A DNA stretch of 64,000 bases from Erysipelotrichaceae bacterium (lineage in GTDB: Bacteria; Bacillota_I; Bacilli_A; Erysipelotrichales; Erysipelotrichaceae). The stretch's first letter is position 1. Each line of letters opens with the position of its first letter. The DNA lies in assembly GCA_017445225.1 (NCBI GenBank), contig JAFSUN010000014.1:1-64000 (forward strand). Direction: 5' to 3'. This document shows positions 1,976-18,380 of the stretch, piece after piece. The position numbers and the translations under genes were made by a program. Below the pieces are notes generated by a model that was not told the origin of the DNA, made no database searches, and saw only the letters and a program-made list of their open reading frames with translations.

Positions 1976-2004
1976 AATATACCCCAAACATTTAGCACTG
2001 TCAA
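1976..2004 (-). promoter_or_regulatory. Sigma-A promoter of hrcA-grpE-dnaK
   Basis: On the minus strand TTGACA (1999-2004) and TATATT (1976-1981) are separated by 17 bases, close to the vegetative consensus. The -35 box lies inside the main CIRCE, so HrcA bound there would block RNA polymerase. Confidence 0.85.
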
Positions 2005-2018
2005 CGATTAAGTGCTAA
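1992..2018. promoter_or_regulatory. CIRCE operator (HrcA binding site)
   Basis: TTAGCACTG, nine bases, then AAGTGCTAA. This equals the CIRCE inverted repeat TTAGCACTC-N9-GAGTGCTAA except for the innermost base of each arm. It overlaps the -35 box of the hrcA promoter. Confidence 0.92.
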
Positions 2019-2030
2019 ATTATTTTGGAA

Positions 2031-2054
2031 GAAAAAGAAACTCCGAAGAGTTTC
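2031..2054 (-). terminator. Rho-independent terminator of the pilus operon
   Basis: On the minus strand GAAACTC-TTCG-GAGTTTC forms a 7-bp stem closed by a stable UUCG tetraloop and is followed by TTTTTCTT. It lies directly after the stop codon of the giant adhesin gene. Confidence 0.9.
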
Positions 2055-2057
2055 CTT

Positions 2058-5000
2058 TCAATCCAGCATCCGACGCATGATCATCATCAGAATAACAGTG
2101 ATCACCGGCACTCCCAACAGTGTCAATCCGTTAAATCCGATATCAGCGCCGGTCGGAATCGCCGCATTACGCTCATTAATGAATATCAACTTTTGATCAT
2201 CAGTCAGTCTTCCTGAATGACGGTTGCCGTTAACCTCCATAGTCTTCTTCAGGCTTTCTACTCGAACGGATGGCCGATAATCTTCACAGTTCTCCTCAAT
2301 TGAGAACTCACAGTCTTTCTTTAGCGACAGTTGTATACAGTCGCCATGTTTCATTCGAAAACTGTAACCCCTGTTGTTGGAGTCATAAGAAAGCGTAATA
2401 GGCTCTCCATTTTTATGACCGGTAATAACAGACTGCAGATCATCCTCATCATTTAGACGGATGATGAACTGGAAATCGTGCATACGGTCAGCGATGTTAC
2501 CGGCAACCTGTTTTTCAATTACCAGGTTCCTGTCACATCTTTCATTGACAAATGTTACGAATACATTCTGATCTTCTCTGACCGTCTGCCACTGAGTCGT
2601 CAGTTCACTGTTCTGCCTTCCCGACGCTTCCTGCAGCAGACGACCGTTATCATCGGTTATCTGATAACTTCCCCGATAAGCTGATGCTTCCTCCATCAGG
2701 CGGTAGAGTGTCCCGACCGGCAGATCGCTGATCGTCAGTTGCTCCCCATCTTCCAGTGAAAATCTGAAGACCGCCCTTCCTTCATCATCGGCATTGATCA
2801 GACCAAAGTCAGTTACATATCCGACCGAAGGTTCCAGATTACGGAATTCAGCAGTAAACCGGAAATTATCTCCTTCCACTGGATCGATGACCTGCTTTCT
2901 GACAGAGATCTTTTGCCTTCTGATAACTTCATTAGTAAAGATGACTCTGACGGCCTCGTTGGGGTCAGCAGTTTCTGATCTGGTCATCAGCGACTGATAT
3001 TCACCGTCATTATGTCCGCAGGAACCGGTAATTCTGCCCACACCGTTATCATCAATTATCTGATAAGAAGCGTTCCAGTTACCAGCCGGTTCATAGAAGA
3101 AATACGTACAGCCAACCGGCAGATCATGAAACACGACCTTCCTTCCGTCATTCATGTTAAGATCCATCCAGGCGTTTCCTTCCTCATCACTGCGCAGAGA
3201 CGGAAGTTCACTGTCATCTGCTGATACCTGATAAGCCTTCCCGGCTGTCAGGCCTGAGAAACCGGCCGACAGTACATAAGTACCTGAAGAATCAAAGCGT
3301 CCGGAAACCTTCTTTTCCAGCGTTACATCGACACCGGGGATATCTGCCTTCCGGTTGTTTTCAACTACAGCCTCAATAACCGTATCAGCACTGATGATGC
3401 CCTGGCAGTTAAGGTATTGGGCTTCATACCGATCATGATCCGTTTCCTTTATTTCATAGGCCGTACCGAGCGGAAGATTATGCAACCAGACCGGTTCTTC
3501 AGGTGTGATGTAGACACTGGCAACCCCGTTTTCAAATATGACTCCGGAGAATATCTGGGCCCCATGGATGCCGCTGCCGCTCAGACTGACCGTCAGCAGA
3601 AAGCGTTCATTGTCTTCACACTGCTTGACGATCTTAAGGCTTCCGGTGTTCTGTTCACTGACATTGACGATTTCAAACGTCTTGTCCTCTGAAGGGTCAA
3701 ACATTGCGGATCCCTCTCCCATGATCTCACACTCATATCCATCGATCGTTTCTTCATTGATCCAGTATGGGCACTGATCATCTTCGACGGCAAAATGATA
3801 GATCCACTGATCATTCTCCTTTATCCAGCCTTCATCATCGGAAACATATTCAACGGCATCTGTTCTGACACTGAGCAAGCCAATATCACTGCTATTTAAT
3901 GTTTCTTTACGAGCCATCATTTTATCGCCGGAAAAACTGCTGACAGTTCTCTGGCGTTCCCTGTAGGTAAGGTAACCGCCGCTACCGTAATGAGCGTTGG
4001 TTACATCAACAACTGAAGAATCAAAATTCGGAAGATTAAGACAGCCCCTGAACATGTCTGCACTGGAAGTGACATTGGACGTACTCCAGCCATCGGAAAC
4101 ATAGATAGTTTCCAGCGCCGGATCTGCCTGAAACATTCTGCTCATATTATTGACATTTCCCGTGTCAAACGATGACAGATCCAGTGACTTCATTTTTTTA
4201 TTGCCGGTAAACATGTAACTCATTACCGTAACATTTGAAGTATCAAATGATGATAGATCAAGCTGCTGCAGGTTTTCACAGTAGTAAAACATCTGATTCA
4301 TGTTGGTTACAGCTGAAGTGTTGAAATTGCGAAGATCCAGAGCCGTCAGCCCCTTACAGCTAACGAACATGAACCCCATGCTCTTTACCTTATCGGTGAC
4401 AAAATGACTGACATCGATATCCGTCAACAGCTCACAGCCGTAAAACATTCCATACAGACTTGTAGCACTGGAAGTATCTACGGTACTGATGTTAAGCTCC
4501 GTCAGTTTACGGCAGTTGAACAGCAGCGCTCTCAGATCTTCGGCGTGTGAAGTATCAAGATGGGAGAAGTCGGCTTTTTCCAACTGATAGCAGCCATACA
4601 GAAACTTGTAATAACTGGTGACGTTGCTGCTGAGGAAGCCGTTTAGATCAACGCTTCTCATCACTCCGAATCCTTCAAACATGGAAGAACAGTCATCCGG
4701 CAGCCAGACACGCGGACAATCGGATGCCCAATAAGCGCACTTCTCTCCCTGTTCATTTTCTTCGATCCAGAAACGGACTTCAGACTCGCTGCTGCCGTCA
4801 TCAATTCTCACACTTCCCGGCTTCTCCACAATCTGCGGCCAGGAAAGATCCGTACGGTGTTCAAAGCTGACAACAGAGCTTTTATTGTCGGCTGTCAGTA
4901 CATTAGTGTTCCACTTGGCTTTGTCGATCCTGACGCTCTTCAACTGAGCTGTGATCTCACCAGCTGCTGAAACAATGTTTCCGGTTTCATCGGTAACAAT

Positions 5001-8000
5001 GCTTACCAGGGTTCTTTCGTTGGCTGTGGCTGAGAATGAATAACCGGTAACTTCTTCTCTGATATTCAGATAATAATTCTGAGTATTTCTTATCAGACTG
5101 CTGAAATGGTAGTTCCATTCATTACCGCTCTTTAACCAGCGGCCGGCAGCCGACTCCTCAATTACCGTCCCGTCCTCAGCGGTCAGTATTGCCGTAACAT
5201 TTTCCGGTCTTGAATCAGTGAATCCTTCATCATTCCAGACGATCTTTACATCACAGCCACTGTAGAAAGTCGGCCTGATGGTAGATAGATGTATCCTGGG
5301 AATCGGACGTTCGTCGTTGCTGCGGTTACCGTCCTGCCATTTCTTGATGATGGTTATGGTCTTATCTCTCAATGGTTCGTTTTCAAATGAAAGGGCTCCA
5401 ACCTGACTGTCAAAGGTCAGTCCGTCACTGCTGACATTGCCCTTTTCATCTATTCTGACGATAAATGCTCTGGTATCAGTCAGGTAGTTAAAACGTCCGT
5501 TCTCACTGTAGTGACCGTTTTCATCCAGGGACTGGGGAGCCTTGATCTCCTTTAACAGGTAGGTGCCCTTTTCCAAATCATTGAAAATTGCTATTCCGTT
5601 AGTTCCCGACAACGCTGTCCGATCATATTCTTTTCCGCTGTCAGACAGACCCCATAATCGGAATTGCGCTGTTTCCAGAGGCTTGCCGGTTCCTTTTTCC
5701 CTTTTGATGACTGACAGATCATGCCAGCGGTTTTCATCATATACGTTATAAAAACCGTCTTCCAGTACAACATTTCCCAGCCGTTCATTATCATCTCCGA
5801 TCACTTCAGCATGGCCGCTGTCATTAATTATCACGGTCCAGACGGTGCGGTTCACTAAGACGCGTTCAGGGCAGCTGATTTCCGTCAGCTGGTAGGTTCC
5901 CTTCTCCACATTAGAGAACACACAGCGGCCGGCATCATCAGTTCGTTCGATCATGTTCACGGAATTGCGGTAATCAGATGTCCCGCTCAGTTTAAATACG
6001 GTCTCGGATACCGGTAATGATTCATGGTGATCAGTACGTTCATTTACCTTCCGAAGCTTCAGATCACCGTGGATCCGCGGATAGTTGTCAATGACGATCG
6101 GTTGCTCAGAATAGTCTTCACCGTTGATCATCACCTTTCCCGTATCATCGATGAAAACACGGTATTCACTGCTGTCTAACTGCCAGCTGTCAGGAGCCTC
6201 ATATTCCTGCAGAACATATCCCCCGCCCTTACTGACCGTCGACTTTTCAATGCCTCGGAAGTTCAGGTAACCAGTCCAGTCGCTGGTGGCATACATGTCC
6301 ACCTCGGTACCGTAATCGCTGGTTCCCGTCAGGCGGAAGACAACGTTTCTGATACCCTCATCAGGTTTTGTTCCATTAATCTTTCTAATCCTAAGGTCCG
6401 CAGTAACGCTAAGAGTTACTTCCGTATTATCCTGATGGATCAGGTTGGTGATCAGGGAACCGTCTACTGAACTGATGAGGGAGTTCAGAATGTAGACATT
6501 GTTATAAGCCCGGGGATAACCATCGACTGCTGCTGCCTGTTTTGGTGCCTTCATATGAATAATTGCACTTAAGGATTCGCCGGCCTGAAGAATGAAGTCT
6601 TCCCCATTATCCTGCAATCGCATGTCAATGGCGATGGCCCGGCATTCAGACAGCTGTTCTTCACTTTCCAGCCGTTTCCAGATGCTTCGATCCGCAAGAT
6701 CATGGTGTTCTTCAATGTCCAGATCCTGAACGGTTGAGAAGTAGATGATCGGTTTGGCTCCTCTATCAGTGATCTGACTGACATCGATCGACTGTACCGT
6801 TCCCCGGAAGTCGCTGCTTCTACCGTCGCTGATGAAGCTTTCCAGACTGTCAAACAGGATCAGACCGCAGCTGCTGGAAGCCTGGGAATTCTGATATCGC
6901 AACCGATAGGAATAGGTTTCATTCGGAGAAGTACGGCATTCATCAGCGTAATATCCGCTGTCATCACTGACCTTCTTGGTCAGCCCGCTACTGGCAGCCG
7001 TGATGGCATAGATGTCATAACTGGTATCAGCATAGACGAAGCGGTCAGAATTACAGGAAGGATCCAGCCCTGCCAGCAATTCCGGCTGTCTGAGTCCCTG
7101 ACCGTCATCAGGATGTCCCTGCACCAGATCGTGATTTCCGGTCTCATAGGCTGCCGCGTTGTACACTGAACGGCCGTAATCCTTCAGACTTTCCCAGGAA
7201 AATCCGGTTTCGTAAATAACCTGACAGTACATGAACGGTACGGTAACGTTAATCTTCAGAAGATCCTGGCCGCTGCCCCGGAAATCGGAAATTCGGGTGA
7301 TTTCATATTCACTGCGGTCCAAATCACCTTTTTCAGAGATGACCTCGACTGCTTCATCCTTCAGGGCAGCTCCCTTGGGAAGAAGGTCATAGAAGATACC
7401 ACTGCGCTGTTCGAGGTAGTTTTCGGCATTCTGCGAACTATTGATCTTCTCTCGCATATCCAGCTTCCACTTGATAAAATAGGATGCTGCATTGACATCG
7501 TTGTAGGTAGACACCAGTTTCTTGCTGAAGTAACTGGTTCGCTGGCTGACGGTGACAAAATCACTGTCTGCCTCACTGTCAGTCCCGATCAGCTGATCAT
7601 CCTGATCATAGATGGCGGCTCTTTCCGTATTATGGATGCCTAGAGCCTGGGTGCCCTTCTGATGCAGAAAGCTCATGATCCTTTCGCTGCTGTTTAGACT
7701 CATCGATATTACGGCATTGACTGTGACGGAGAAATGGGTGTTCTCCGTAACGATCTGCCAGCCGATGCATCCCGGTTTGAGAATCAGTTCTCCATTCGAG
7801 AAGGATTCAACGTAATGGCTCTCCTTACTCAGATTCCCGGTTTTCAGGTCATGCGATGCCATCAGCTGCCATTGACCATCATTGTCAAATTTGCCATAAA
7901 ACAGCAGTTTTTCGTTATCCTTATAAGTCGGCTGAATACGCTGATACTGAAGATCATCCTGCAGGACGGCATCGTTCATGTACCAGCTGTAACTGATCTT

Positions 8001-9434
8001 GTCAAAGCAGTAGTCTCCGCTTTCCAGCAGCAGAGCCGTCTGCGAATCATAACCGTCTTTTTCATCAAAGATCCGGACCTCATCATCAGTTATCACATAC
8101 TTAACCTTACGGCGGCCGAAATTATCGGGATCACTGCTGTTTTCCGGATCGATTCCGGTATGCTCATACATGTCGGCGGTCAGCCAGACCGCATAATCCA
8201 GCTGTGAAAGTTTGTTGTTGGTCCCATCAAGAAAACGGTCAAGATCATAACGGGAATATAGGCCGGCTTCCATGCCCAGATCACTGAGATATTCCCGGGG
8301 ATACCTGTTCTTTTCGTACTGACTGCGGTAGAAGCCATCAGCCCGCTTATGGCTTTTGAAGATGCCGGACGGTACTCTGAATACCGGCTTGTTCCAGCTG
8401 TACCGGGCCTCATCATTAAGGGTCACAGGGCTGTCGATGCCGTCCAGAGGTGATACGGTTACGCTTACTTCATTCAGAGTGTTCCAATGCGTTTCGCCCG
8501 TCACCAGGTCCTTTCTGATCCTGGTAAGAACATAGTCAAAGCGTTTTCCGGTTATTCTCTGATCATCAACATGATCGGCTGAGGAATAACTGCTCTGCCC
8601 ATAGAAACGGTAACCGACAACCTCCAGCTTCTGATCCTTTGGCCGGTCTGTGATCTGCAGGCGGTAAGGCTGGGTAGTATCAGACGATATTACCGTCCTT
8701 AACGGCCAGATCAGATAGAAGTAATCATCACTGTCAGCCGGTCTTTCACCCCAGTCATCATTCCAGACATTGATGAGCTTTTCGGGGATCATCTTGGTAA
8801 GGGAGTCAACAGCGACCTGCGAATCAAAATAGACATTTATTTCTTCCGACCGGGCAGAAACAGGATCAGCGGTCAGGATGTCAATCGTACTCAGGAAGGT
8901 CCTGAAGTGACTGGTATCAATGGAGCCCGGATGGCTGTCACGGTATTCAAACGAAGAGTCCTTCTGAACATATGACACCTCAAAGAAACCGTTATAACCG
9001 GCCGGCAGCTTGCGGAAGTTGTAGATGACCAGCTGATCATTTTCCTTATACCAGGCAAAGTCGATGTCCTTAAGTATTTCTTCTCCTTCTCCCTCGGCCT
9101 GTTCCCTCATCGGCAATGACATTTCGACATAGTCACCGCTGCTGCCGTCGCGTTCGATCATGATCCCATCAGGTATTCTGATCGTGACGGCTTCTCTGGC
9201 AATCTCACCGCCGCCGCTGAACGCAAAGCTCACCCGATAACTGAGACGGTGTCCGCTCTGGGAAATCTGCGGCTGCCAGACATAATAACTGCCCCTGTTT
9301 TCAGCGCCATCAAAGCATTCAGCCTCAAAGCTCTCCAGGATCACCTCACCGGTTTTTCCTCTAACCGTTTCGGCCGGATACAGATGTGCTGAGATAACCA
9401 GAAAACACATGATCATTAAAATCAGTTTTTTCAA
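2058..9434 (-). CDS. Giant pilus-associated surface adhesin with sortase signal
   Basis: A 2458-residue cell-wall protein, last gene of the pilus operon. Order of parts: signal peptide (1 to about 25); a large N-terminal region of about 950 residues I do not recognise; three SpaA/Cna_B-like beta domains starting near 1015, 1123 and 1238 (repeating FRLTGTSDYG / FKLSGTSDY / FRLWGLSDSG themes); a further Cna_B-type segment near 1356; a BspA-type DUF285 repeat block at about 1560-1815 (repeating DLSSFDTSNVTVMSYMF-type units); then about four Spy0128/DUF7601-like domains (about 1930-2420) opening with LEKKVSG-like and closing with FTNE/FVNER motifs typical of isopeptide-forming domains. The C-terminus has AIPTG, a hydrophobic helix and RR. 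The start is TTG, overlapping the previous stop codon as TTGA, with AAGGAG 8 bases upstream. Position and signal suggest a Cpa-like tip adhesin; ligand unknown. Confidence 0.85.
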   Translation of the reverse strand: MKKLILMIMCFLVISAHLYPAETVRGKTGEVILESFEAECFDGAENRGSYYVWQPQISQSGHRLSYRVSFAFSGGGEIAREAVTIRIPDGIMIERDGSSGDYVEMSLPMREQAEGEGEEILKDIDFAWYKENDQLVIYNFRKLPAGYNGFFEVSYVQKDSSFEYRDSHPGSIDTSHFRTFLSTIDILTADPVSARSEEINVYFDSQVAVDSLTKMIPEKLINVWNDDWGERPADSDDYFYLIWPLRTVISSDTTQPYRLQITDRPKDQKLEVVGYRFYGQSSYSSADHVDDQRITGKRFDYVLTRIRKDLVTGETHWNTLNEVSVTVSPLDGIDSPVTLNDEARYSWNKPVFRVPSGIFKSHKRADGFYRSQYEKNRYPREYLSDLGMEAGLYSRYDLDRFLDGTNNKLSQLDYAVWLTADMYEHTGIDPENSSDPDNFGRRKVKYVITDDEVRIFDEKDGYDSQTALLLESGDYCFDKISYSWYMNDAVLQDDLQYQRIQPTYKDNEKLLFYGKFDNDGQWQLMASHDLKTGNLSKESHYVESFSNGELILKPGCIGWQIVTENTHFSVTVNAVISMSLNSSERIMSFLHQKGTQALGIHNTERAAIYDQDDQLIGTDSEADSDFVTVSQRTSYFSKKLVSTYNDVNAASYFIKWKLDMREKINSSQNAENYLEQRSGIFYDLLPKGAALKDEAVEVISEKGDLDRSEYEITRISDFRGSGQDLLKINVTVPFMYCQVIYETGFSWESLKDYGRSVYNAAAYETGNHDLVQGHPDDGQGLRQPELLAGLDPSCNSDRFVYADTSYDIYAITAASSGLTKKVSDDSGYYADECRTSPNETYSYRLRYQNSQASSSCGLILFDSLESFISDGRSSDFRGTVQSIDVSQITDRGAKPIIYFSTVQDLDIEEHHDLADRSIWKRLESEEQLSECRAIAIDMRLQDNGEDFILQAGESLSAIIHMKAPKQAAAVDGYPRAYNNVYILNSLISSVDGSLITNLIHQDNTEVTLSVTADLRIRKINGTKPDEGIRNVVFRLTGTSDYGTEVDMYATSDWTGYLNFRGIEKSTVSKGGGYVLQEYEAPDSWQLDSSEYRVFIDDTGKVMINGEDYSEQPIVIDNYPRIHGDLKLRKVNERTDHHESLPVSETVFKLSGTSDYRNSVNMIERTDDAGRCVFSNVEKGTYQLTEISCPERVLVNRTVWTVIINDSGHAEVIGDDNERLGNVVLEDGFYNVYDENRWHDLSVIKREKGTGKPLETAQFRLWGLSDSGKEYDRTALSGTNGIAIFNDLEKGTYLLKEIKAPQSLDENGHYSENGRFNYLTDTRAFIVRIDEKGNVSSDGLTFDSQVGALSFENEPLRDKTITIIKKWQDGNRSNDERPIPRIHLSTIRPTFYSGCDVKIVWNDEGFTDSRPENVTAILTAEDGTVIEESAAGRWLKSGNEWNYHFSSLIRNTQNYYLNIREEVTGYSFSATANERTLVSIVTDETGNIVSAAGEITAQLKSVRIDKAKWNTNVLTADNKSSVVSFEHRTDLSWPQIVEKPGSVRIDDGSSESEVRFWIEENEQGEKCAYWASDCPRVWLPDDCSSMFEGFGVMRSVDLNGFLSSNVTSYYKFLYGCYQLEKADFSHLDTSHAEDLRALLFNCRKLTELNISTVDTSSATSLYGMFYGCELLTDIDVSHFVTDKVKSMGFMFVSCKGLTALDLRNFNTSAVTNMNQMFYYCENLQQLDLSSFDTSNVTVMSYMFTGNKKMKSLDLSSFDTGNVNNMSRMFQADPALETIYVSDGWSTSNVTSSADMFRGCLNLPNFDSSVVDVTNAHYGSGGYLTYRERQRTVSSFSGDKMMARKETLNSSDIGLLSVRTDAVEYVSDDEGWIKENDQWIYHFAVEDDQCPYWINEETIDGYECEIMGEGSAMFDPSEDKTFEIVNVSEQNTGSLKIVKQCEDNERFLLTVSLSGSGIHGAQIFSGVIFENGVASVYITPEEPVWLHNLPLGTAYEIKETDHDRYEAQYLNCQGIISADTVIEAVVENNRKADIPGVDVTLEKKVSGRFDSSGTYVLSAGFSGLTAGKAYQVSADDSELPSLRSDEEGNAWMDLNMNDGRKVVFHDLPVGCTYFFYEPAGNWNASYQIIDDNGVGRITGSCGHNDGEYQSLMTRSETADPNEAVRVIFTNEVIRRQKISVRKQVIDPVEGDNFRFTAEFRNLEPSVGYVTDFGLINADDEGRAVFRFSLEDGEQLTISDLPVGTLYRLMEEASAYRGSYQITDDNGRLLQEASGRQNSELTTQWQTVREDQNVFVTFVNERCDRNLVIEKQVAGNIADRMHDFQFIIRLNDEDDLQSVITGHKNGEPITLSYDSNNRGYSFRMKHGDCIQLSLKKDCEFSIEENCEDYRPSVRVESLKKTMEVNGNRHSGRLTDDQKLIFINERNAAIPTGADIGFNGLTLLGVPVITVILMMIMRRMLD

Positions 9435-9937
9435 TCCCGCATCTCCTTTCTTCTCGTTATGATCATCACCGCCAGCAGGCTGACAGTCAGGTTCATGACC
9501 TTACCTGATAATTCTCCCCGGTCAGCCGTATCGACGATCTCGATCGGTTCTTCCAGAAAAACGATCTTTTCCTCCTTCAGATCCGATCCTTCTCTGGTCA
9601 AAACGGAATAGCTGTGCAGAGTGCTGTCACTTCTGGCTTCAACGAAGACGGTAAGATGATAGACACTGTCTGCTTCCCGGGGGTTATTCCGGTAGATGGT
9701 ATAGGTATAGGTACCCGGCTGGAGAAAGCGGATCCGGTATTTTTCTTCGCCGGTCTCATATCCGCACTGCACGGCAACCGGATTAGTCATGTCATCAGGA
9801 CTGAAGACGACCGCGGAAGGATCGTCAGTTCTGATCATCATTTCCAGACAGTCCTCATCCGTATTCGCTCTTACACTAGCGCTCGACAGAATGATCGTCA
9901 GAATGACGGCTGTCACTTTAAGCATTTTCATTTTCAT
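9431..9937 (-). CDS. Small secreted FctB-like pilus protein
   Basis: A 168-residue protein with an N-terminal signal peptide (about 1-25, ending SVRAN). One compact beta domain contains RIRFLQPGTYTYTIYR and VYHLTVFVE, the theme seen in Spy0128/FctA-family pilins. The C-terminus has a hydrophobic helix and the basic tail RRKEMRD, but no LPXTG- or IPTG-like motif; the corresponding place reads IVDTADRGEL. It overlaps the sortase gene by 20 bases and its TGA overlaps the TTG of the adhesin gene, so all three are translationally coupled. By locus order it resembles FctB, the basal subunit of streptococcal FCT pili; the role is inferred from position and fold only. Confidence 0.7.
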   Translation of the reverse strand: MKMKMLKVTAVILTIILSSASVRANTDEDCLEMMIRTDDPSAVVFSPDDMTNPVAVQCGYETGEEKYRIRFLQPGTYTYTIYRNNPREADSVYHLTVFVEARSDSTLHSYSVLTREGSDLKEEKIVFLEEPIEIVDTADRGELSGKVMNLTVSLLAVMIITRRKEMRD

Positions 9938-10634
9938 TTATCTCCTTAAGGCTTGCCAGAAGTACCGTTCTCTTCAGAGTACCCTGATCGCGGCAGGTGG
10001 ACATTCCGATAACCCTGCCCTCTTCCGGCTCCAGGAATATCAGCGCCTTCTTTCTGGCAAATTCGATCAATTTACCTTTGCTTCCCGGATCAAAGATCAG
10101 GGAATTATTAGCATCGCAGCTGATCAGAGCAAAAACCATGAGTTCATACTTCCGGTCACCTGCGTAGAGGATTCCCTGCCGGTGAAGGCGGAAATAATCC
10201 TCATCATAGTAATGATCAAGAGCCCCGAACATGGCATCATTGGCCATGTGATGTCCGTACAGAAGCGAATACTGATCGGAAAAATCACGACTGTTGCGGC
10301 AATCGAGAAAGATGGAACCGGCAAGAGAAAACCGGCCATAGGGATCCGTATTCAGATAGTCGGTATTGTTTTCTCCCTGCATGACCGGATAGCTTATTCC
10401 GGTATCATCCAGAATAAGCCATCCTACGGCATCCCGGCTCAGGACGGTCATCTCATCAGCTATCTCCTGTTCATCTTTGAGATAGCGTCCTACGGAACTG
10501 AAGGTTGAATTACGGAAGACATGAACGCTGTCGCAGGTGAAATAACACCCCAGGGCAAACAGTATCATCATGGCTGTAATTAAAACCGTGTCCAGCAGGC
10601 CTTCAGTAATTCGGAGCCTGAGCCGCGGATTCAT
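9918..10634 (-). CDS. Class B sortase (pilus polymerase type)
   Basis: A 238-residue membrane-anchored transpeptidase. A transmembrane segment lies at about 14-34. Catalytic residues are visible: His128 in YGHHM, Cys214 in GMSTC and Arg222 in LKRTV. The YGHxMxxDxMFG and LSTC-x7-R patterns are those of class B sortases such as Spy0129 of Streptococcus pyogenes, which polymerises pili at a VPTG-type signal. Here the adjacent pilin ends in VIPTG and the adhesin in AIPTG, fitting substrates. The gene begins 3 bases after the pilin gene and overlaps the next gene by 20 bases. Confidence 0.9.
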   Translation of the reverse strand: MNPRLRLRITEGLLDTVLITAMMILFALGCYFTCDSVHVFRNSTFSSVGRYLKDEQEIADEMTVLSRDAVGWLILDDTGISYPVMQGENNTDYLNTDPYGRFSLAGSIFLDCRNSRDFSDQYSLLYGHHMANDAMFGALDHYYDEDYFRLHRQGILYAGDRKYELMVFALISCDANNSLIFDPGSKGKLIEFARKKALIFLEPEEGRVIGMSTCRDQGTLKRTVLLASLKEINENENA

Positions 10635-10637
10635 CGC

Positions 10638-11849
10638 CTATTCTTCGCTTTCCTTTCTTTTTCGACTTACTAAAAGGAGGATGCTGCTGATGGCCCCGGT
10701 CATCATCATGATTCCCGGAGTAGCTGACATGATGATACCGGTGGGAATCACCCCATTACGGGTATTGGTATAACCGGTATAAACATCGGTATTGCCGATG
10801 GTGCCCTGAACCGGATCATCATGTAGCTTTTCCGGCTGATCTTCGCTGGCGGGTCTTACTACCCGGTCGGTACCTTCCCGCCTGAGATAGTCTTCATTTG
10901 CTTCCTTCAGATCGTAGGCCGTATTCTCCGTCAGCCCCTTGACGGTGATGTACTGACCGTCCTTCAGATAGAAATCCATTACGGCGCTTCCGTTGTCATC
11001 GGTGGTTATCTGGGTGGGGTTAGTTAAGGATTCATAGATGGTTGCGCTGTTGGCCGTGCCGCTGGCTTCCGCTTCGGAAATATCCAGATAGTAAGCTGTA
11101 TTCTTCAGGGCATTATCCAAGGTCAGGGTGAACTTGAAATACTTGTCCTTTGATCCCTGATTTCCCTCAACTTCATTACCGAATTTAAGATCAGCACTGA
11201 TCAGCTGATTGACAAAACCGTCACTCTTATCGCTCAGCCTCTCAGCATCAGCGCCGCTGAAGGCGGAACCGGCCTGCTGACCGGCAGCGATTTCCGTTAC
11301 GTTTTCGTGGAGTACATATCCGGAAATCTGAAGAGTTCCATTGTCATCTGTAACATAGACATCCAGACAGCGTACCTTACTGCCTATAACGGCAGCCTGT
11401 ACGTCATAGCGGATCCCCTGCTGACCGGTGGAAGTCATCGTTAAGAGATAACGGTAGATGCCCGGTTCATCAAAACTGACCTGGGAAAAGTCAATGTTGA
11501 CGGTTTTGACCCCATATCCCTGATCTGCTGTCAGAGTCAGATCGCTGCCGGAAGCCGGTGTCGTACTGATGGCATCCGTCTGGCTGAAGACACTGTCGCT
11601 CACGGAAACCTTATCAGCGCTGACGCCGGCCAGAATTGCCATCTTTCCTTCGCCATAGTTTTGGGGACTGCCGGCCGTTATTTCATAATTGAAGGTCACA
11701 TCCGGCAATCGGGCTTCCCGGTCAAGAATCAGGTACTGGTTAAATTGCGTTACGGTTCCCTTAACCGGTGCATAACCGGCGGCCTTAACGCTGATGGCGG
11801 ATGCGAAAAACAGTCCGGTCATCATGATGTAAAGCAGTTTTCTTTTCAT
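10638..11849 (-). CDS. Major pilin, Spy0128/FctA-like
   Basis: A 403-residue cell-wall protein with a signal peptide (1 to about 23, ending VKAAG). There are two Spy0128-like beta domains: about 30-155 (LPDVTFNYEIT through YRYLLTMTSTG) and about 215-365 (KFGNEVEGNQGSKDKYFKF through YTGYTNTRNG). The sorting region is VIPTG, a hydrophobic helix and SRKRKESEE. Family members are backbone pilins with intramolecular Lys-Asn isopeptide bonds. The closing Asn is present in YTNTRNG, but I cannot assign the bonding lysines with certainty; the first strand reads FNQYLIL where related proteins often carry Lys. It follows the SipA-like gene by 26 bases and precedes the sortase gene by 3. Confidence 0.88.
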   Translation of the reverse strand: MKRKLLYIMMTGLFFASAISVKAAGYAPVKGTVTQFNQYLILDREARLPDVTFNYEITAGSPQNYGEGKMAILAGVSADKVSVSDSVFSQTDAISTTPASGSDLTLTADQGYGVKTVNIDFSQVSFDEPGIYRYLLTMTSTGQQGIRYDVQAAVIGSKVRCLDVYVTDDNGTLQISGYVLHENVTEIAAGQQAGSAFSGADAERLSDKSDGFVNQLISADLKFGNEVEGNQGSKDKYFKFTLTLDNALKNTAYYLDISEAEASGTANSATIYESLTNPTQITTDDNGSAVMDFYLKDGQYITVKGLTENTAYDLKEANEDYLRREGTDRVVRPASEDQPEKLHDDPVQGTIGNTDVYTGYTNTRNGVIPTGIIMSATPGIMMMTGAISSILLLVSRKRKESEE

Positions 11850-11875
11850 TAAAATCTCCTTTTTTCTGGCTGAAT

Positions 11876-12358
11876 TCAGAAACCCCGGTGTCTTACGATC
11901 AGGAAGACACTGCCTTTTATTGCTTCCGAACTTATGGGGCCTTGACTGCGGGAATCACCGAACTGTTCACGGTAGTCGTTAACAACGAAGTATTCCCCCC
12001 TGCCAAGCTGCAGAGGATAGATCAGGCCGGAGTCCGGATCAGGATCGCTGCGGTAGTAAATGGTTTCGTACGGAACACTGTCATTGACGGTCAGATTTCC
12101 CGTGTTAGTGATGTTCACCGTATCACCGGGGCCGGCTTCGATTCTGCCCAGCTGCAAGGTTCCTTCACTCTGGTAAATGACGATCTCCTGAGACTTGTAA
12201 CCTCCTTTTTTCCAGGCAATGCAGAGATCGCCATCCCTGACAGAGGGAAACATTGAGCGGTCATGGTAGATTAGAATGCCGGCCTTAAGGTAAAGCAGGA
12301 AGGCTGCTGCCAGTAATACTGCTGCCTTTATGGCGATCCTGATCCTGGTTTTTCTCAT
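11876..12358 (-). CDS. SipA-like signal peptidase homologue, catalytic lysine missing
   Basis: A type I signal-peptidase-fold membrane protein of 160 residues. The open frame extends to 12388, but the ATG at 12358 has GGAGG 8 bases upstream and is preferred. One transmembrane helix lies at about 10-30. Box B is RSMFPSVRDGD, so the serine position is kept (Ser35 from this start). The box D equivalent reads LGRIEAGPGD, with Gly71 where active enzymes have the catalytic Lys before Arg. Box E-like NDYREQFGDSRSQGPI is present. In streptococcal FCT loci the equivalent protein, SipA/LepA, also lacks a functional dyad and is required for pilus polymerisation. As first gene of the pilus operon it probably acts as an assembly factor rather than a protease. 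Confidence 0.85.
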   Translation of the reverse strand: MRKTRIRIAIKAAVLLAAAFLLYLKAGILIYHDRSMFPSVRDGDLCIAWKKGGYKSQEIVIYQSEGTLQLGRIEAGPGDTVNITNTGNLTVNDSVPYETIYYRSDPDPDSGLIYPLQLGRGEYFVVNDYREQFGDSRSQGPISSEAIKGSVFLIVRHRGF

Positions 12359-14321: not shown

Positions 14322-17300
14322 TTATTTAAATGCAGCCTTAATGCTCTTTACAGATGAATAAGCTGAATAGTACTTCATTCCCGTAACATCCGTATAGAAA
14401 CTTCTTACCTTCAGATAGTATGTCTTATTGGTTGACGGTACCTGAAAAATCCTGTTACATCCAGTTGTTTCTCCCAGGGATTTGAACTTCTTGTTCTTAT
14501 ATAGACTCCACTGGACCTCATAGCCCTGGGCCTGGGAATTCTCATCCCAGTTGATCATGATGGCTCTGTTTTCATGATCCAGGCTCAGGATCAGATTTGC
14601 CGGTTTGCTCAAGGCAGAAACCTTTACGCTCTTTATGCCACTGTAACCGGAAGTAACGGTGGTGGGGCCGATTTCCTTGAAAGCCCTCACCCTGTAATAG
14701 TATGTCTGTCCCGGTTTAACGTGATCAACATATTCAGCCGTACTGCAGATGCCAACCTGCTTGAAACCGCCGGACCTTCTGGTGCTGCGGTAGATCTGAT
14801 AGCCGGTTGCGGCTGGTACTTCCCCAAATGACAGTGTTACCTTGTTGATCTCGTCAGGATCATCCGCCCTCACAGTACTCAGAACCGGATTGGCAAGCGT
14901 TAATTTACCGATGAGGATATTGCTGTAGGAAGAATAATACTTCTTGCCGTTAAGTTCATAGACGGCTCTTACTTTAAAGTAGTAATTCTTGCCGTTTACG
15001 GTCTTAAGGAAGTCGCCGGTACTTTCATCATAGGTTCCAACAAGTTTATACCCCTTTTTCTTTCTGGTTGACTGATAAAGCTGATAGCGGGACGCAAAGC
15101 GGTTATCACTCCAATCCGCTGTCAGTTTCCATTCATCCAGATCTGCCATCACTTCAATAAGTTTAGGGGTTTCAATGGTGATCTTGACGGATTTATAGCT
15201 GCTATAGGCACTGAACACTTCGTTCTTGTAATTACTGCCTACGGCTCTTACCCGATAATAGTTCTTTTTACCCGGTATTACCGAGGCATCATCAAAGGTG
15301 ATTTCACTCGTTTCCCCGATGGTCTTATAGCCTTTCTTGGCTGAAGCGCTCCTCTGGATCTGATACCTCTGGGCTCCTTCAACAGGGACAATGCTGACAG
15401 TTGTCTGGTTGTTACCGCTCTGAGTGACCGTGATTTCCGGTTTCGTCAGCGTCGTCTGACCGGCAACCGAGGCTGATTCCGAATGATACGTCGACCCCTG
15501 ATCATTGTATTTTGCACTGACCTGGTAATAGTACTTTAGTCCCGGCTCAGCATTATTGTTAATGAAAGTTGTTTCCGGCGTGATCCCGATTATACTGTAA
15601 CTAGCCATGTCGGAACTTCCTGCCCTTCTGAACTCATAGCTGACATCATCTCTGGCAGGGTTGGTAACCGTGATCTGCATCCTGGTGGCACTAAGCGGGG
15701 TCACCTTTATTTTTGGAGTGGGAACGATAATGAAGGGGTGATAATTGGACTCCATGGTAATGATTCCCTCATATACCGTCTTCACAACATAACGATAGAG
15801 CACACCGGGCTGAACGTTCTTATGTACGTAGTAGTTCTGATCAGCCGGTATTTCACCCAGTTTCTGATAGGCATTCCCTTCTCTGCTGACCCAGATCTCA
15901 TATCTGTCGGCATTATCAACCGTTCTGATGGTCAGGGTAACGTTATTGTCATCAGTTCGCCTGGCCCATTGAATGAAAGCTTCATTGAATTCTTCGGCCA
16001 GCAGCCACCAGCCGTCAATGGCCTTTACGCTTTCCGAATCGTCTGGATCATATTCAGCAGCCAGAGCCAGATGATTTCTGACTTCGCCGGTCATCAGATT
16101 TTCCCATTTGCCGGCTCTTACAACCGGTATCTCCCGTAATCCGGTTCCAAAATTGACAGCCTTTAATTTCGGGCAGTCCTTAAAGGTATCCTTCATGCTT
16201 CCGGTAACCTTAAAGCCGCTTAAGTCAGCGTATTTCAGGTTGTACTGGCCTTCAAACCAATGATCCATGTCATCAACCGTGACAGTTTGGTGATCAATTA
16301 CTTCAACGCTGTTTATGTTACCGTACAGTCTTTCATTTACAGAAGTATCATATTTTTTGAAGATGAGTCCCACATATCTGTTTCCATAGATGTCCTGGAA
16401 TTCTCCATGGGTGTCATGTTCGTATTCATCCATGCATCTGGTAAAGTAAAGACCGCCGTCACTGGAATTACGGATGACACAGGGAATGCTCTCCTTAATA
16501 GTCAGCGAAGCTGGTTCGCTTTCGATCTGATTGCCGAATTCATCCGTGATCAGACACTTGAACTGATAGCCTGCCAGATAATCGCCGTCGATCAGAAGAT
16601 TAAGATAGTTCCTTCCGGCGCCATAGATCTCATTCCACTGTTCGCCATCATCATACAACCATTGGTATCTCAGTCTCTTTCCCTCAGCTTTCACTTCATA
16701 AGTAGCCGTACCATAAATATCGTTGACGACCGGTTGCGGCTGGCTGGTGATCACCGGCGGGTAATAGAAAGTGCGGAACAGACAGTAGTTTCCGTAATTG
16801 TTTACGGTAACATTGTTTTTCCATTCTTCTTCACTCCCATCGAAATAACAGTACTCTACCTTATCGCAGTCAAGAAAACTGCACCTGCCCATGTAGGTAA
16901 CATCCCCGTCAATGAACACTGACAGGATGTAATCCCTGATCCCGTACCAGGGAGCCTGGCCGTTGTCATAATCGTACATCGCCCCTTCACCTTCAATGGT
17001 AAGGCGGCCCAGAGCACTGTCGTAACAGGCCATCAGCGCATCACCGCAGCTGACTTCAAGATTGCTGATTTCATCATTTGGCACAACATTGATCCTGATC
17101 GTTTCCTGGAAACCGCAGTTGCTGATCTGAATCACTCTTTCTCCAGGTGATACGAAAACCAGATCAAAGGTGCCATCGGACTTATAGGTCAGGCTTTTCC
17201 ACTTCTCGCCATAAATAAGGCGGAATTCACTCCATTTTATCTCTTCCGGTTTCGGCGGGGTCTCCAGAACGATGTTGCAAGGCTGCCAGGCCTCTACCGT

Positions 17301-18380
17301 CTCATCATACTGGACAACGCGGAAACTGTTGATGATCCTTTCCGCTCCGCTGAGCGAATAACCGTAGTTTCCGGTAGAGGTAGGATAAACCTCGTCAAAT
17401 TCAACCGTGTCGTAACAGTTGACCAGGAAGTTTTCCCGATAATGGTATGGGAAGTCATCTGACCCCTTCAGGAAATACTCATACTGGCTGTGCTGGACAC
17501 CGGCATCCCAGGTAGCATCCAGATTATAGTACAGTTTATCCATCTTAACGATGTTCCAGGCATGCGGACCATTTGCTTCACCGGCAATGCAGCGGGCCGC
17601 CAGAGCGGTTTCCCGGCACAGGCGGTACACCAGAGCTGCATATCCCTGACAGACGGCTGAATGGTTCATTAAGGCCGCATAGGCGGTATACTTAAGCGTA
17701 TAGTCTTCATCTTCCAGATGGTCAAAGTCATACTTGACCGTGGAAGTAACATAATCATAGATTCTGAGTATCCGGTAATTGTTCTTTAAGCCATCCAGTT
17801 TCAGTTCCTGCACAAGCGCATCAACGGCTCTGTTGACTTCCTGCTCCTGCTGATAGGTGGTGTGATAGATGACATCATAGTTTATATAGAGAATGTCCTC
17901 ATCCTTCTCATAGGTATACGAATAGCCATAGCAGTTAAACAGGAGGTAATCCCCTTCATCCGGATTTTCCGTTTCCCGGAAGGCCTCAACCAGGACCGCC
18001 GTCAGAATATCGGTTTCCGAGGTGCCGTTTCCATAGACGGAAGTATCGATGCCGATGCTGATGGCCTCGTTGGCTCTTCTTACCATCATCGCCCGGACAT
18101 AGTCACCGGCTGATCTCAGATCGCTGAACACCGGTGTGCTCTCATTAGCGTTGATGCTGTAGGTTGCTCTCTTGCGGTCGATCAGTACACTTAACTGATC
18201 TTCCGTTATGCAGTCAGCATAGACCGGATTGACAACGACACGGCGCTCATCTTTCAGCTGATCTTCATTCCGAGGACGCAGATTCCCCCGGGTTTCCGGG
18301 CTTTCGGCACGAACAGAAAAAGGCATCATTAAACTAATGACTACACTTAATGTTAATAATATGCCAAATAATCTTTTCAT
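14322..18380 (-). CDS. Secreted transglutaminase-like protein with fibronectin-type repeats
   Basis: A 1352-residue exported protein with a signal peptide (1-25, ending SVRAE). Residues about 190-295 form a transglutaminase/protease core with a recognisable triad: Cys244 in AVCQGYA, His273 in PHAWNIV and Asp288 in LDATWD. An Ig-like domain follows (about 543-633, SQPQPVV opening, YQWLYDD), then a short BspA/DUF285-like segment (about 700-750, MDHWFEGQYNLKYADLSGF). About six fibronectin type III-like modules run from about 800 to the end, each closing with YYRVRA/YYLKVR-like strands. There is no LPXTG signal or C-terminal membrane helix, so it is secreted or held non-covalently. AAAGGGG precedes the ATG. 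Such proteins may hydrolyse or crosslink peptides; substrate unknown. It stands alone between two terminators. Confidence 0.82.
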   Translation of the reverse strand: MKRLFGILLTLSVVISLMMPFSVRAESPETRGNLRPRNEDQLKDERRVVVNPVYADCITEDQLSVLIDRKRATYSINANESTPVFSDLRSAGDYVRAMMVRRANEAISIGIDTSVYGNGTSETDILTAVLVEAFRETENPDEGDYLLFNCYGYSYTYEKDEDILYINYDVIYHTTYQQEQEVNRAVDALVQELKLDGLKNNYRILRIYDYVTSTVKYDFDHLEDEDYTLKYTAYAALMNHSAVCQGYAALVYRLCRETALAARCIAGEANGPHAWNIVKMDKLYYNLDATWDAGVQHSQYEYFLKGSDDFPYHYRENFLVNCYDTVEFDEVYPTSTGNYGYSLSGAERIINSFRVVQYDETVEAWQPCNIVLETPPKPEEIKWSEFRLIYGEKWKSLTYKSDGTFDLVFVSPGERVIQISNCGFQETIRINVVPNDEISNLEVSCGDALMACYDSALGRLTIEGEGAMYDYDNGQAPWYGIRDYILSVFIDGDVTYMGRCSFLDCDKVEYCYFDGSEEEWKNNVTVNNYGNYCLFRTFYYPPVITSQPQPVVNDIYGTATYEVKAEGKRLRYQWLYDDGEQWNEIYGAGRNYLNLLIDGDYLAGYQFKCLITDEFGNQIESEPASLTIKESIPCVIRNSSDGGLYFTRCMDEYEHDTHGEFQDIYGNRYVGLIFKKYDTSVNERLYGNINSVEVIDHQTVTVDDMDHWFEGQYNLKYADLSGFKVTGSMKDTFKDCPKLKAVNFGTGLREIPVVRAGKWENLMTGEVRNHLALAAEYDPDDSESVKAIDGWWLLAEEFNEAFIQWARRTDDNNVTLTIRTVDNADRYEIWVSREGNAYQKLGEIPADQNYYVHKNVQPGVLYRYVVKTVYEGIITMESNYHPFIIVPTPKIKVTPLSATRMQITVTNPARDDVSYEFRRAGSSDMASYSIIGITPETTFINNNAEPGLKYYYQVSAKYNDQGSTYHSESASVAGQTTLTKPEITVTQSGNNQTTVSIVPVEGAQRYQIQRSASAKKGYKTIGETSEITFDDASVIPGKKNYYRVRAVGSNYKNEVFSAYSSYKSVKITIETPKLIEVMADLDEWKLTADWSDNRFASRYQLYQSTRKKKGYKLVGTYDESTGDFLKTVNGKNYYFKVRAVYELNGKKYYSSYSNILIGKLTLANPVLSTVRADDPDEINKVTLSFGEVPAATGYQIYRSTRRSGGFKQVGICSTAEYVDHVKPGQTYYYRVRAFKEIGPTTVTSGYSGIKSVKVSALSKPANLILSLDHENRAIMINWDENSQAQGYEVQWSLYKNKKFKSLGETTGCNRIFQVPSTNKTYYLKVRSFYTDVTGMKYYSAYSSVKSIKAAFK

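What the first reader, a model, noticed from the sequence alone, without database searches (positions are those of the whole stretch)
2058..12358. Complete FCT-like class B sortase pilus locus outside streptococci
Five coupled genes encode a SipA-like protein, a Spy0128/FctA-like pilin ending VIPTG, a class B sortase, an FctB-like small protein and a giant adhesin ending AIPTG, in one operon closed by a UUCG terminator. Order and signals match the T3-type (FCT) pilus locus of Streptococcus pyogenes, but the tip-type protein is far larger and carries different modules. This suggests an undescribed pilus of a non-streptococcal Firmicute.
Basis: partly seen in the sequence, partly recalled or inferred. 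Interest (0 to 1): 0.75.

Follow-up and report, generated by a model that had tools for sequence, protein, structure and literature searches.

The report
Gut-bacterium covalent pilus gene cluster
This is an intact set of five genes for building a hair-like adhesive fibre (pilus) of the kind known from Streptococcus pyogenes and Clostridium perfringens; related sets are common in gut Firmicutes, and the odd point here is that the shaft protein seems to have lost the internal chemical cross-links that normally stiffen such fibres.

Summary
On the minus strand, 12358-2058, five intact, tightly coupled genes encode a degenerate signal peptidase (SipA-like), a two-domain Spy0128/FctA-type pilin ending VIPTG, a class B sortase, a small FctB-type protein and a 2458-aa surface protein ending AIPTG, closed by a UUCG hairpin. 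The order sipA-fctA-srt-fctB is that of the GAS FCT core; the tip-type gene lies downstream. The claim of an undescribed kind is too strong: C. perfringens has a demonstrated class B sortase pilus with the same parts list, and 24 of 55 testable gut-Firmicute loci show exactly this five-gene order. Unusual here: the shaft pilin lacks the Lys of both intramolecular isopeptide triads (55 of 67 pilins keep both triads), although the inter-subunit Lys is kept and the giant keeps seven triads; the base pilin has IVDTAD instead of a PxTGD-type signal. Within its genus the locus occurs only in this genome, at a variable hrcA-proS junction. Pilus formation itself is inferred.

The parts
11876..12358 (-). 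SipA-like degenerate type I signal peptidase; Ser kept (S45 of the 170-aa frame), general-base Lys replaced by Gly (G81)
   Evidence: PDB SipA 4n31 E 4.6e-20; TIGR02227 3e-18; Lys position not Lys in 75 of 77 relatives; intact dyad in a separate LepB elsewhere in the genome
10638..11849 (-). FctA/Spy0128-type shaft pilin, 403 aa, two CnaB-type domains, sorting signal VIPTG (10751-10737)
   Evidence: AlphaFold2 mean pLDDT 85.2; Foldseek 3gld 2.5e-17; VIA-align Z 17.6 over 260 residues with 3gle/3b2m
11226..11228 (-). Codon of K208, candidate inter-subunit (polymerising) Lys near the end of the N-domain
   Evidence: Lys in 63 of 67 distinct pilins; corresponds in place to Spy0128 K161 (PMC3019223)
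9918..10634 (-). Class B sortase, pilus-polymerase type; H128/H129, C214 and R222 conserved
   Evidence: tree
9431..9937 (-). FctB-type small basal pilin candidate; C-terminal IVDTAD in place of a PxTGD-type signal, no Pro-rich tail
   Evidence: family profile hits FctB 3klq 6.6e-14 and FctB3 8k6t 2.2e-13; alignment A2; tails
2058..9434 (-). Giant ancillary (tip-type) surface protein, 2458 aa, sorting signal AIPTG (2162-2148)
6408..9362 (-). Head of the giant (residues 25-1009): conserved in relatives, not matched by any Pfam model; residues ~632-1009 look like CnaA-type Ig domains of AgI/II and MSCRAMM adhesins
   Evidence: alignment A4; Pfam; model mean pLDDT 72.7; Z 11-12 with AgI/II C-domains
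5367..6401 (-). Three SpaA/CnaB-like domains of the giant, each with a Lys-Glu-Asn triad
   Evidence: Pfam PF17802 8.4e-29, 3 stretches; triads K1018/E1077/N1117, K1129/E1185/N1230, K1244/E1296/N1352
4005..4637 (-). DUF285 / PARCEL (BspA-like leucine-rich) repeat array of the giant
   Evidence: PF03382 2.6e-34; TIGR02167 9.5e-38, 5 repeats
2169..3641 (-). Four DUF7601-type domains of the giant, each with a Lys-Glu-Asn triad
   Evidence: PF24547 1.9e-30, 3 stretches; four triads listed
2032..2059 (-). Intrinsic terminator, UUCG tetraloop, starting at the giant's stop codon

Best explanation
The locus encodes one sortase-assembled covalent pilus of the S. pyogenes FCT-2/T1 type. Shown from sequence or models: five intact coupled genes; a pilus-type class B sortase; a Spy0128-type shaft pilin with a conserved candidate linking Lys (K208) and a VIPTG signal; a SipA-like partner without the catalytic Lys; an FctB-type small protein; a giant AIPTG protein. 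Inferred from the GAS system: the sortase cleaves after Thr of VIPTG and joins it to K208 of the next pilin, with the SipA-like protein as a required non-enzymatic helper; the giant, which shares the xIPTG signal, is joined first and rides at the tip as the adhesin; FctB is added last, stops growth, and is attached to the wall by another sortase. The only other sortase found in this 75%-complete genome is a class B housekeeping-type enzyme (G000:C10:103009), so that is the likely anchor enzyme. The shaft pilin lacks the Lys of both domain-internal isopeptide bonds, so its domains should not be cross-linked inside, while the giant should carry up to seven such bonds in its CnaB-type domains.
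For: Sortase: best solved relative Spy0129 (9.4e-36; profile 8.3e-68 against 5.4e-52 for the next); a tree of 62 class B sortases puts window and Spy0129 in one group (SH-aLRT 99) apart from 24 housekeeping-type rows, which include the window genome's second sortase. Pilin: model pLDDT 85, Spy0128 Z 17.6. SipA-like; Lys lost in 75 of 77, as in GAS SipA, where the mutant D61S still supports polymerisation (PMC4049620). FctB. Order: SIP-FctA-SRT-small-large in 24 of 55 loci with two genes on either side; SIP+FctA+SRT within 10 kb in 53 of 68. K208 position Lys in 63 of 67. Functional precedents: GAS T1 pilus (PMC3019223, PMC7900414) and C. perfringens NE pilus (PMC8088525).
Against: No filament, ladder or transcript has been seen. 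FctB lacks a recognisable sorting motif, so wall anchoring is uncertain. No class A sortase was found, though the genome is only 75% complete. Tip placement of the giant rests on analogy; it could be decorating or basal. Both isopeptide triads of the shaft pilin are broken, which could also mean decay. The sampled loci were chosen by sortase similarity, so 24/55 is not a prevalence. The sequence is from an incomplete assembled genome.
Confidence: 0.88

Rival explanations
1. A class B sortase cluster that anchors single surface proteins to the wall (as SrtB does for IsdC) and makes no polymer.
For: The family model hit is the general srtB model TIGR03064, below its cut-off (134.5 of 153.75 bits); no polymer has been shown.
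Against: The sortase groups with Spy0129 and not with housekeeping class B enzymes; the main substrate has the Spy0128 fold and the linking Lys; a SipA-like partner, needed for polymerisation in GAS, is in the operon; the operon holds no recognisable haem-uptake gene.
Confidence: 0.05
2. A pilus locus in decay: acquired, now drifting, with a shaft pilin and base pilin that no longer work fully.
For: Both shaft isopeptide triads and the FctB sorting motif have lost conserved residues; the locus is missing from the 8 other genomes of the genus searched and sits at a junction whose content varies.
Against: Five intact, closely spaced or overlapping frames including one of 2458 codons; sortase catalytic residues, K208, VIPTG, AIPTG and seven triads of the giant are kept; three other relatives also lack both Lys.
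Confidence: 0.1
3. The five genes do make a pilus, but the giant is not its tip subunit: it is a separate wall-anchored or shaft-decorating adhesin co-transcribed with the pilus genes. (A variant within the best explanation; its confidence is not exclusive of it.)
For: It is downstream, unlike Cpa; in some relatives large proteins lie on both sides of the core.
Against: Its AIPTG signal is of the same xIPTG type as the pilin's and unlike the xPxTGD signals of FctB relatives or the SPDTGD signal of another surface protein of the genome; its start overlaps the base pilin gene.
Confidence: 0.2

Closest known systems
Streptococcus pyogenes FCT-2/T1 pilus (Cpa, SipA/LepA, FctA Spy0128, SrtC1 Spy0129, FctB)
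   Same: Core order sipA-fctA-srtC1-fctB; class B polymerase of the same tree group; Spy0128 fold; degenerate SipA with Gly at the Lys site; FctB-type fold by profile; xPTG-type signals on shaft and tip proteins.
   Different: Tip-type gene is downstream and 2458 aa with LRR/PARCEL repeats and no Pfam thioester domain; shaft pilin lacks both isopeptide Lys; FctB has IVDTAD and no Pro-rich tail; genomic site hrcA-proS, not hsp33-spy0136; candidate anchor sortase is class B.
Clostridium perfringens NE pilus, locus VR-10B (CnaA, signal peptidase, FimA, FimB, class B sortase), PMC8088525
   Same: Same parts list in one operon outside streptococci, experimentally shown to make a pilus; a second class B sortase gene in the genome.
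   Different: No two-component system beside the window operon; adhesin is a giant with LRR repeats, not CnaA. VR-10B sequences were not compared here.
Sharpea azabuensis DSM 18934 and Sharpea porci loci (L034/L087, L036/L104)
   Same: FctA, SipA-like, pilus-type class B sortase, FctB-like and a large DUF285-type protein in one run.
   Different: Order FctA-SipA-Srt-FctB-large; shorter large protein (1022 and 1305 aa as predicted); the S. azabuensis pilin keeps both triads, that of S. porci lacks the N-domain one.
Pilus islet 2 (PitA/PitB) of streptococci
   Same: PitB is the next most similar solved shaft pilin by structure (Z 12.8).
   Different: Clearly further in structure than Spy0128 (Z 17.6).

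Membership tests
FCT-type class B sortase pilus (GAS T1 kind) | Dedicated class B sortase of the Spy0129 group | tested here: met
FCT-type class B sortase pilus (GAS T1 kind) | Two-domain FctA/Spy0128-fold shaft pilin with xPTG-type sorting signal | tested here: met
   VIPTG
FCT-type class B sortase pilus (GAS T1 kind) | Inter-subunit linking Lys near the end of the N-domain | tested here: met
   position is Lys (K208) in the window and in 63 of 67 pilins; its chemistry is not shown
FCT-type class B sortase pilus (GAS T1 kind) | SipA-like degenerate signal peptidase in the operon | tested here: met
FCT-type class B sortase pilus (GAS T1 kind) | FctB-type basal pilin (fold) | tested here: met
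   family profile 6.6e-14 to 3klq; the single sequence alone is weak
FctB basal pilin with LPxTG-like wall signal | Recognisable LPxTG-like motif and Pro-rich tail | tested here: not met
   IVDTAD, no Pro-rich tail
Isopeptide-stabilised Spy0128-type shaft pilin (common, not universal: 12 of 67 pilins lack a full triad in one or both domains) | Lys-Glu-Asn triads in both domains | tested here: not met
   Q38/M138/N214 and N225/E316/N362; sequence level only
FCT-2 to FCT-4 Cpa-type tip | Thioester-bearing Cpa homologue | tested here: inconclusive
   no thioester-domain Pfam match in the giant; residues 25-600 have a low-confidence model
FCT region of S. pyogenes | Location between hsp33 and spy0136 | tested here: not met
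   flanked by hrcA and proS
Sortase-assembled pilus | SDS-resistant polymer or filament on the cell | not testable with these tools
   needs the organism or purified proteins
C. perfringens NE pilus | Sequence relationship of its pilins and sortase to the window's | not tested
   VR-10B sequences were not fetched; only the text of PMC8088525 was used
Housekeeping/haem class B sortase locus | Sortase grouping with classical SrtB structures (B. anthracis 1rz2, Listeria 5jcv, 4lfd) | tested here: not met

The most novel reading that the evidence does not exclude
The shaft of this pilus is a covalent polymer with no intramolecular isopeptide bond in either pilin domain, so it should be extensible and less resistant to heat or proteases between its inter-subunit bonds, while carrying a very large, heavily cross-linked tip adhesin and a base pilin with a non-canonical wall signal handled by a class B housekeeping sortase.
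Probability: 0.4. Interest if true: 0.6.

Novelty: new variant of a known kind. Interest (0 to 1): 0.45.

Why it matters
Isopeptide bonds inside pilin domains are taken as the reason why these thin fibres survive shear and proteases. A natural relative that keeps the polymerising Lys but has lost both internal bonds allows a direct test of whether those bonds are needed for a working pilus. The loci collected here also show that the GAS-type class B pilus, usually treated as a streptococcal peculiarity, is widespread in gut Clostridia and Erysipelotrichales, often with a large surface protein beside it.

Tried and rejected
A first genome-wide scan with the window sortase alone found nothing; an alignment was needed. 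Anchor-domain searches in the own genome gave no Pfam match and only a sub-threshold SrtB-target match, in a surface protein ending SPDTGD. A thioester domain in the giant was looked for and not found by Pfam. Residues 25-600 of the giant gave no clear structural match; the model there is poor, so nothing is claimed. A promoter could not be named: consensus hits were fewer than in shuffles. No Rfam family was found. Base composition does not mark the locus as foreign (46-50% G+C, like its surroundings). Literature terms for Erysipelotrich/Ruminococcus/Lachnospiraceae FctA-type pili found no description of these gut loci, in a library that holds open-licence papers only.

Full report
OBSERVATION. 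The region reads as described. Five intact frames run on the minus strand from 12358 to 2058: a SipA-like protein, a 403-aa pilin, a sortase, a 168-aa small protein and a 2458-aa protein. The genes are 26 and 3 bp apart and then overlap by 20 and 4 bp, which fits one translationally coupled operon. A UUCG hairpin begins at the stop codon of the last gene (-19.6 kcal/mol, z -4.75).

SORTASE. It matches TIGR03064 (3.5e-39, below that model's cut-off) and, among solved structures, best Spy0129, the GAS pilus polymerase (9.4e-36). A profile of ten relatives scores Spy0129 at 8.3e-68, the next at 5.4e-52 and classical SrtB at about 1e-38. In a tree of 62 class B sortases the window enzyme, Spy0129 and all sortases from pilus-type loci form one group (SH-aLRT 99), together with the structure 4y4q; 21 housekeeping-type enzymes from relatives and three classical SrtBs lie outside. 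The window genome's second sortase (G000:C10:103009) is among the housekeeping type. Reference sequences were copied from the printed HMMER alignments, so they are the aligned parts only, and the tree search was a quick one without bootstrap.

PILIN. Sequence matches to T-antigens are modest (3.6e-9 at best). The AlphaFold2 model made with 36 relatives has mean pLDDT 85. Its best matches are Spy0128 and other T-antigens by Foldseek (2.5e-17) and by VIA-align (Z 17.6, 260 residues), well above PitB (12.8).

WHAT THE PILIN HAS LOST. Spy0128 carries K36-N168 and K179-N303 bonds (PMC7900414) and links subunits through K161 (PMC3019223). On an alignment of 67 distinct pilins, the N-domain triad is intact in 57 and the C-domain triad in 61; 55 have both. 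The window pilin has Q38/M138/N214 and N225/E316/N362. Three others (L064, L101, L110) also lack both Lys, so the loss is recurrent but rare. The linking position is Lys in 63 of 67, the window's K208 included. In the giant protein, seven CnaB-type domains keep a Lys, a Glu and an Asn at the triad places. The loss is thus specific to the shaft. This is a sequence argument; atomic distances were not measured.

SIPA-LIKE PROTEIN. It matches SipA (4.6e-20). Ser45 is kept but the general-base Lys is Gly81. Across 77 family members the Lys is absent in 75, and only one has both Ser and Lys. GAS SipA has Asp and Gly at the two sites, is essential for polymerisation and tolerates Asp-to-Ser (PMC4049620). 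The genome has another signal peptidase with an intact Ser-Lys pair.

FCTB-LIKE PROTEIN. Alone it is at the edge of detection, but the family profile finds FctB (6.6e-14) and FctB3. Relatives mostly end in xPxTGD-like signals; another large surface protein of this genome ends SPDTGD; the window FctB has IVDTAD. How it is anchored is open.

GIANT PROTEIN. From the N-terminus: a ~1000-aa head with no Pfam match, three SpaA domains, a CnaB domain, a DUF285/PARCEL repeat array and four DUF7601-type domains, then AIPTG. The head is conserved at 26-36% identity in proteins of pilus-type loci in other genomes. Its second half resembles CnaA-type Ig domains of AgI/II adhesins (Z 11-12); the first half is modelled too poorly for a statement. 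Tip placement is inferred from the GAS Cpa precedent and the shared xIPTG signal.

DISTRIBUTION. Of 60 relatives searched, those with strong sortase matches have pilus-type gene sets. A scan of genome contigs with the sortase alignment returned the 79 best loci, mostly from gut Clostridia and Erysipelotrichales. In 68 of these the sortase gene was recovered by the gene caller; 53 have SipA-like and FctA-like genes within 10 kb on the same strand. Of 55 loci with two genes on either side, 24 have exactly the window's order with a large last gene. Loci were chosen by sortase similarity, so these are not prevalences; three records are duplicates of genomes also seen under G handles (L034/L087, L035/L102, L036/L104). 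In the window's own genus none of the other 8 genomes has the pilin. In seven of the nine genomes (the window's included) hrcA and proS could be placed on one contig; they are still neighbours, but outside the window genome the interval ranges from about 0.15 to 9.8 kb with unrelated content, so the locus looks like an accessory insertion at a variable junction.

MECHANISM, SHOWN AND INFERRED. Shown: gene content, order, coupling, family and fold assignments, presence or loss of key residues. Inferred by homology to GAS: polymerisation through VIPTG and K208, SipA-like help without catalysis, FctB as stop and base, the giant at the tip. Inferred from what is missing: an uncross-linked shaft, and anchoring by a class B housekeeping sortase.

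KNOWN OR NEW. GAS T1 pili provide the mechanism (PMC3019223, PMC7900414). The C. perfringens NE pilus, with class B sortase, signal peptidase and three pilins in one operon, is an experimentally shown case outside streptococci (PMC8088525). The window locus is therefore a variant of a known kind. Its own features are the shaft without isopeptide Lys, the altered base-pilin signal and the giant downstream adhesin. Searches of the held papers did not find the gut loci described, but that library is partial.

Noticed in passing
window 1994-2020: TTAGCACTG-N9-AAGTGCTAA, a CIRCE-like operator overlapping a TTGACA-17-TATATT promoter in front of hrcA (917-1987, minus), just behind the pilus operon's terminator.
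   Followed up: no
window 14322-18380, minus: 1352-aa secreted protein with a transglutaminase-like core (PF01841, 3e-9) and no LPxTG-type tail, beyond proS; apparently not part of the pilus operon.
   Followed up: partly
L160 (G000:C15 near 12441): Large surface protein (open frame 1890 aa) ending SPDTGD plus membrane anchor; a likely substrate of the genome's housekeeping class B sortase.
   Followed up: partly
L154-L159 (hrcA-proS interval in the same genus): The interval between hrcA and proS varies in content: almost empty in G003, a small membrane protein in G005/G006, a pyrimidine biosynthesis operon in G001. It looks like an exchange site.
   Followed up: partly
L101 (8682-9917) and L108 (1497-2753) pilins: At the N-domain triad positions these have Glu-Lys-Asp instead of Lys-Glu-Asn, possibly a swapped isopeptide arrangement.
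   Followed up: no
L122 10637-17906: The giant gene is split into two overlapping frames in this relative, probably a frameshift or assembly error.
   Followed up: no
PDB 4y4q ('Sortase, SrtB family'): This solved class B sortase falls inside the pilus group of the tree, beside Erysipelotrichales pilus sortases, so it may be a pilus polymerase rather than a housekeeping SrtB.
   Followed up: no
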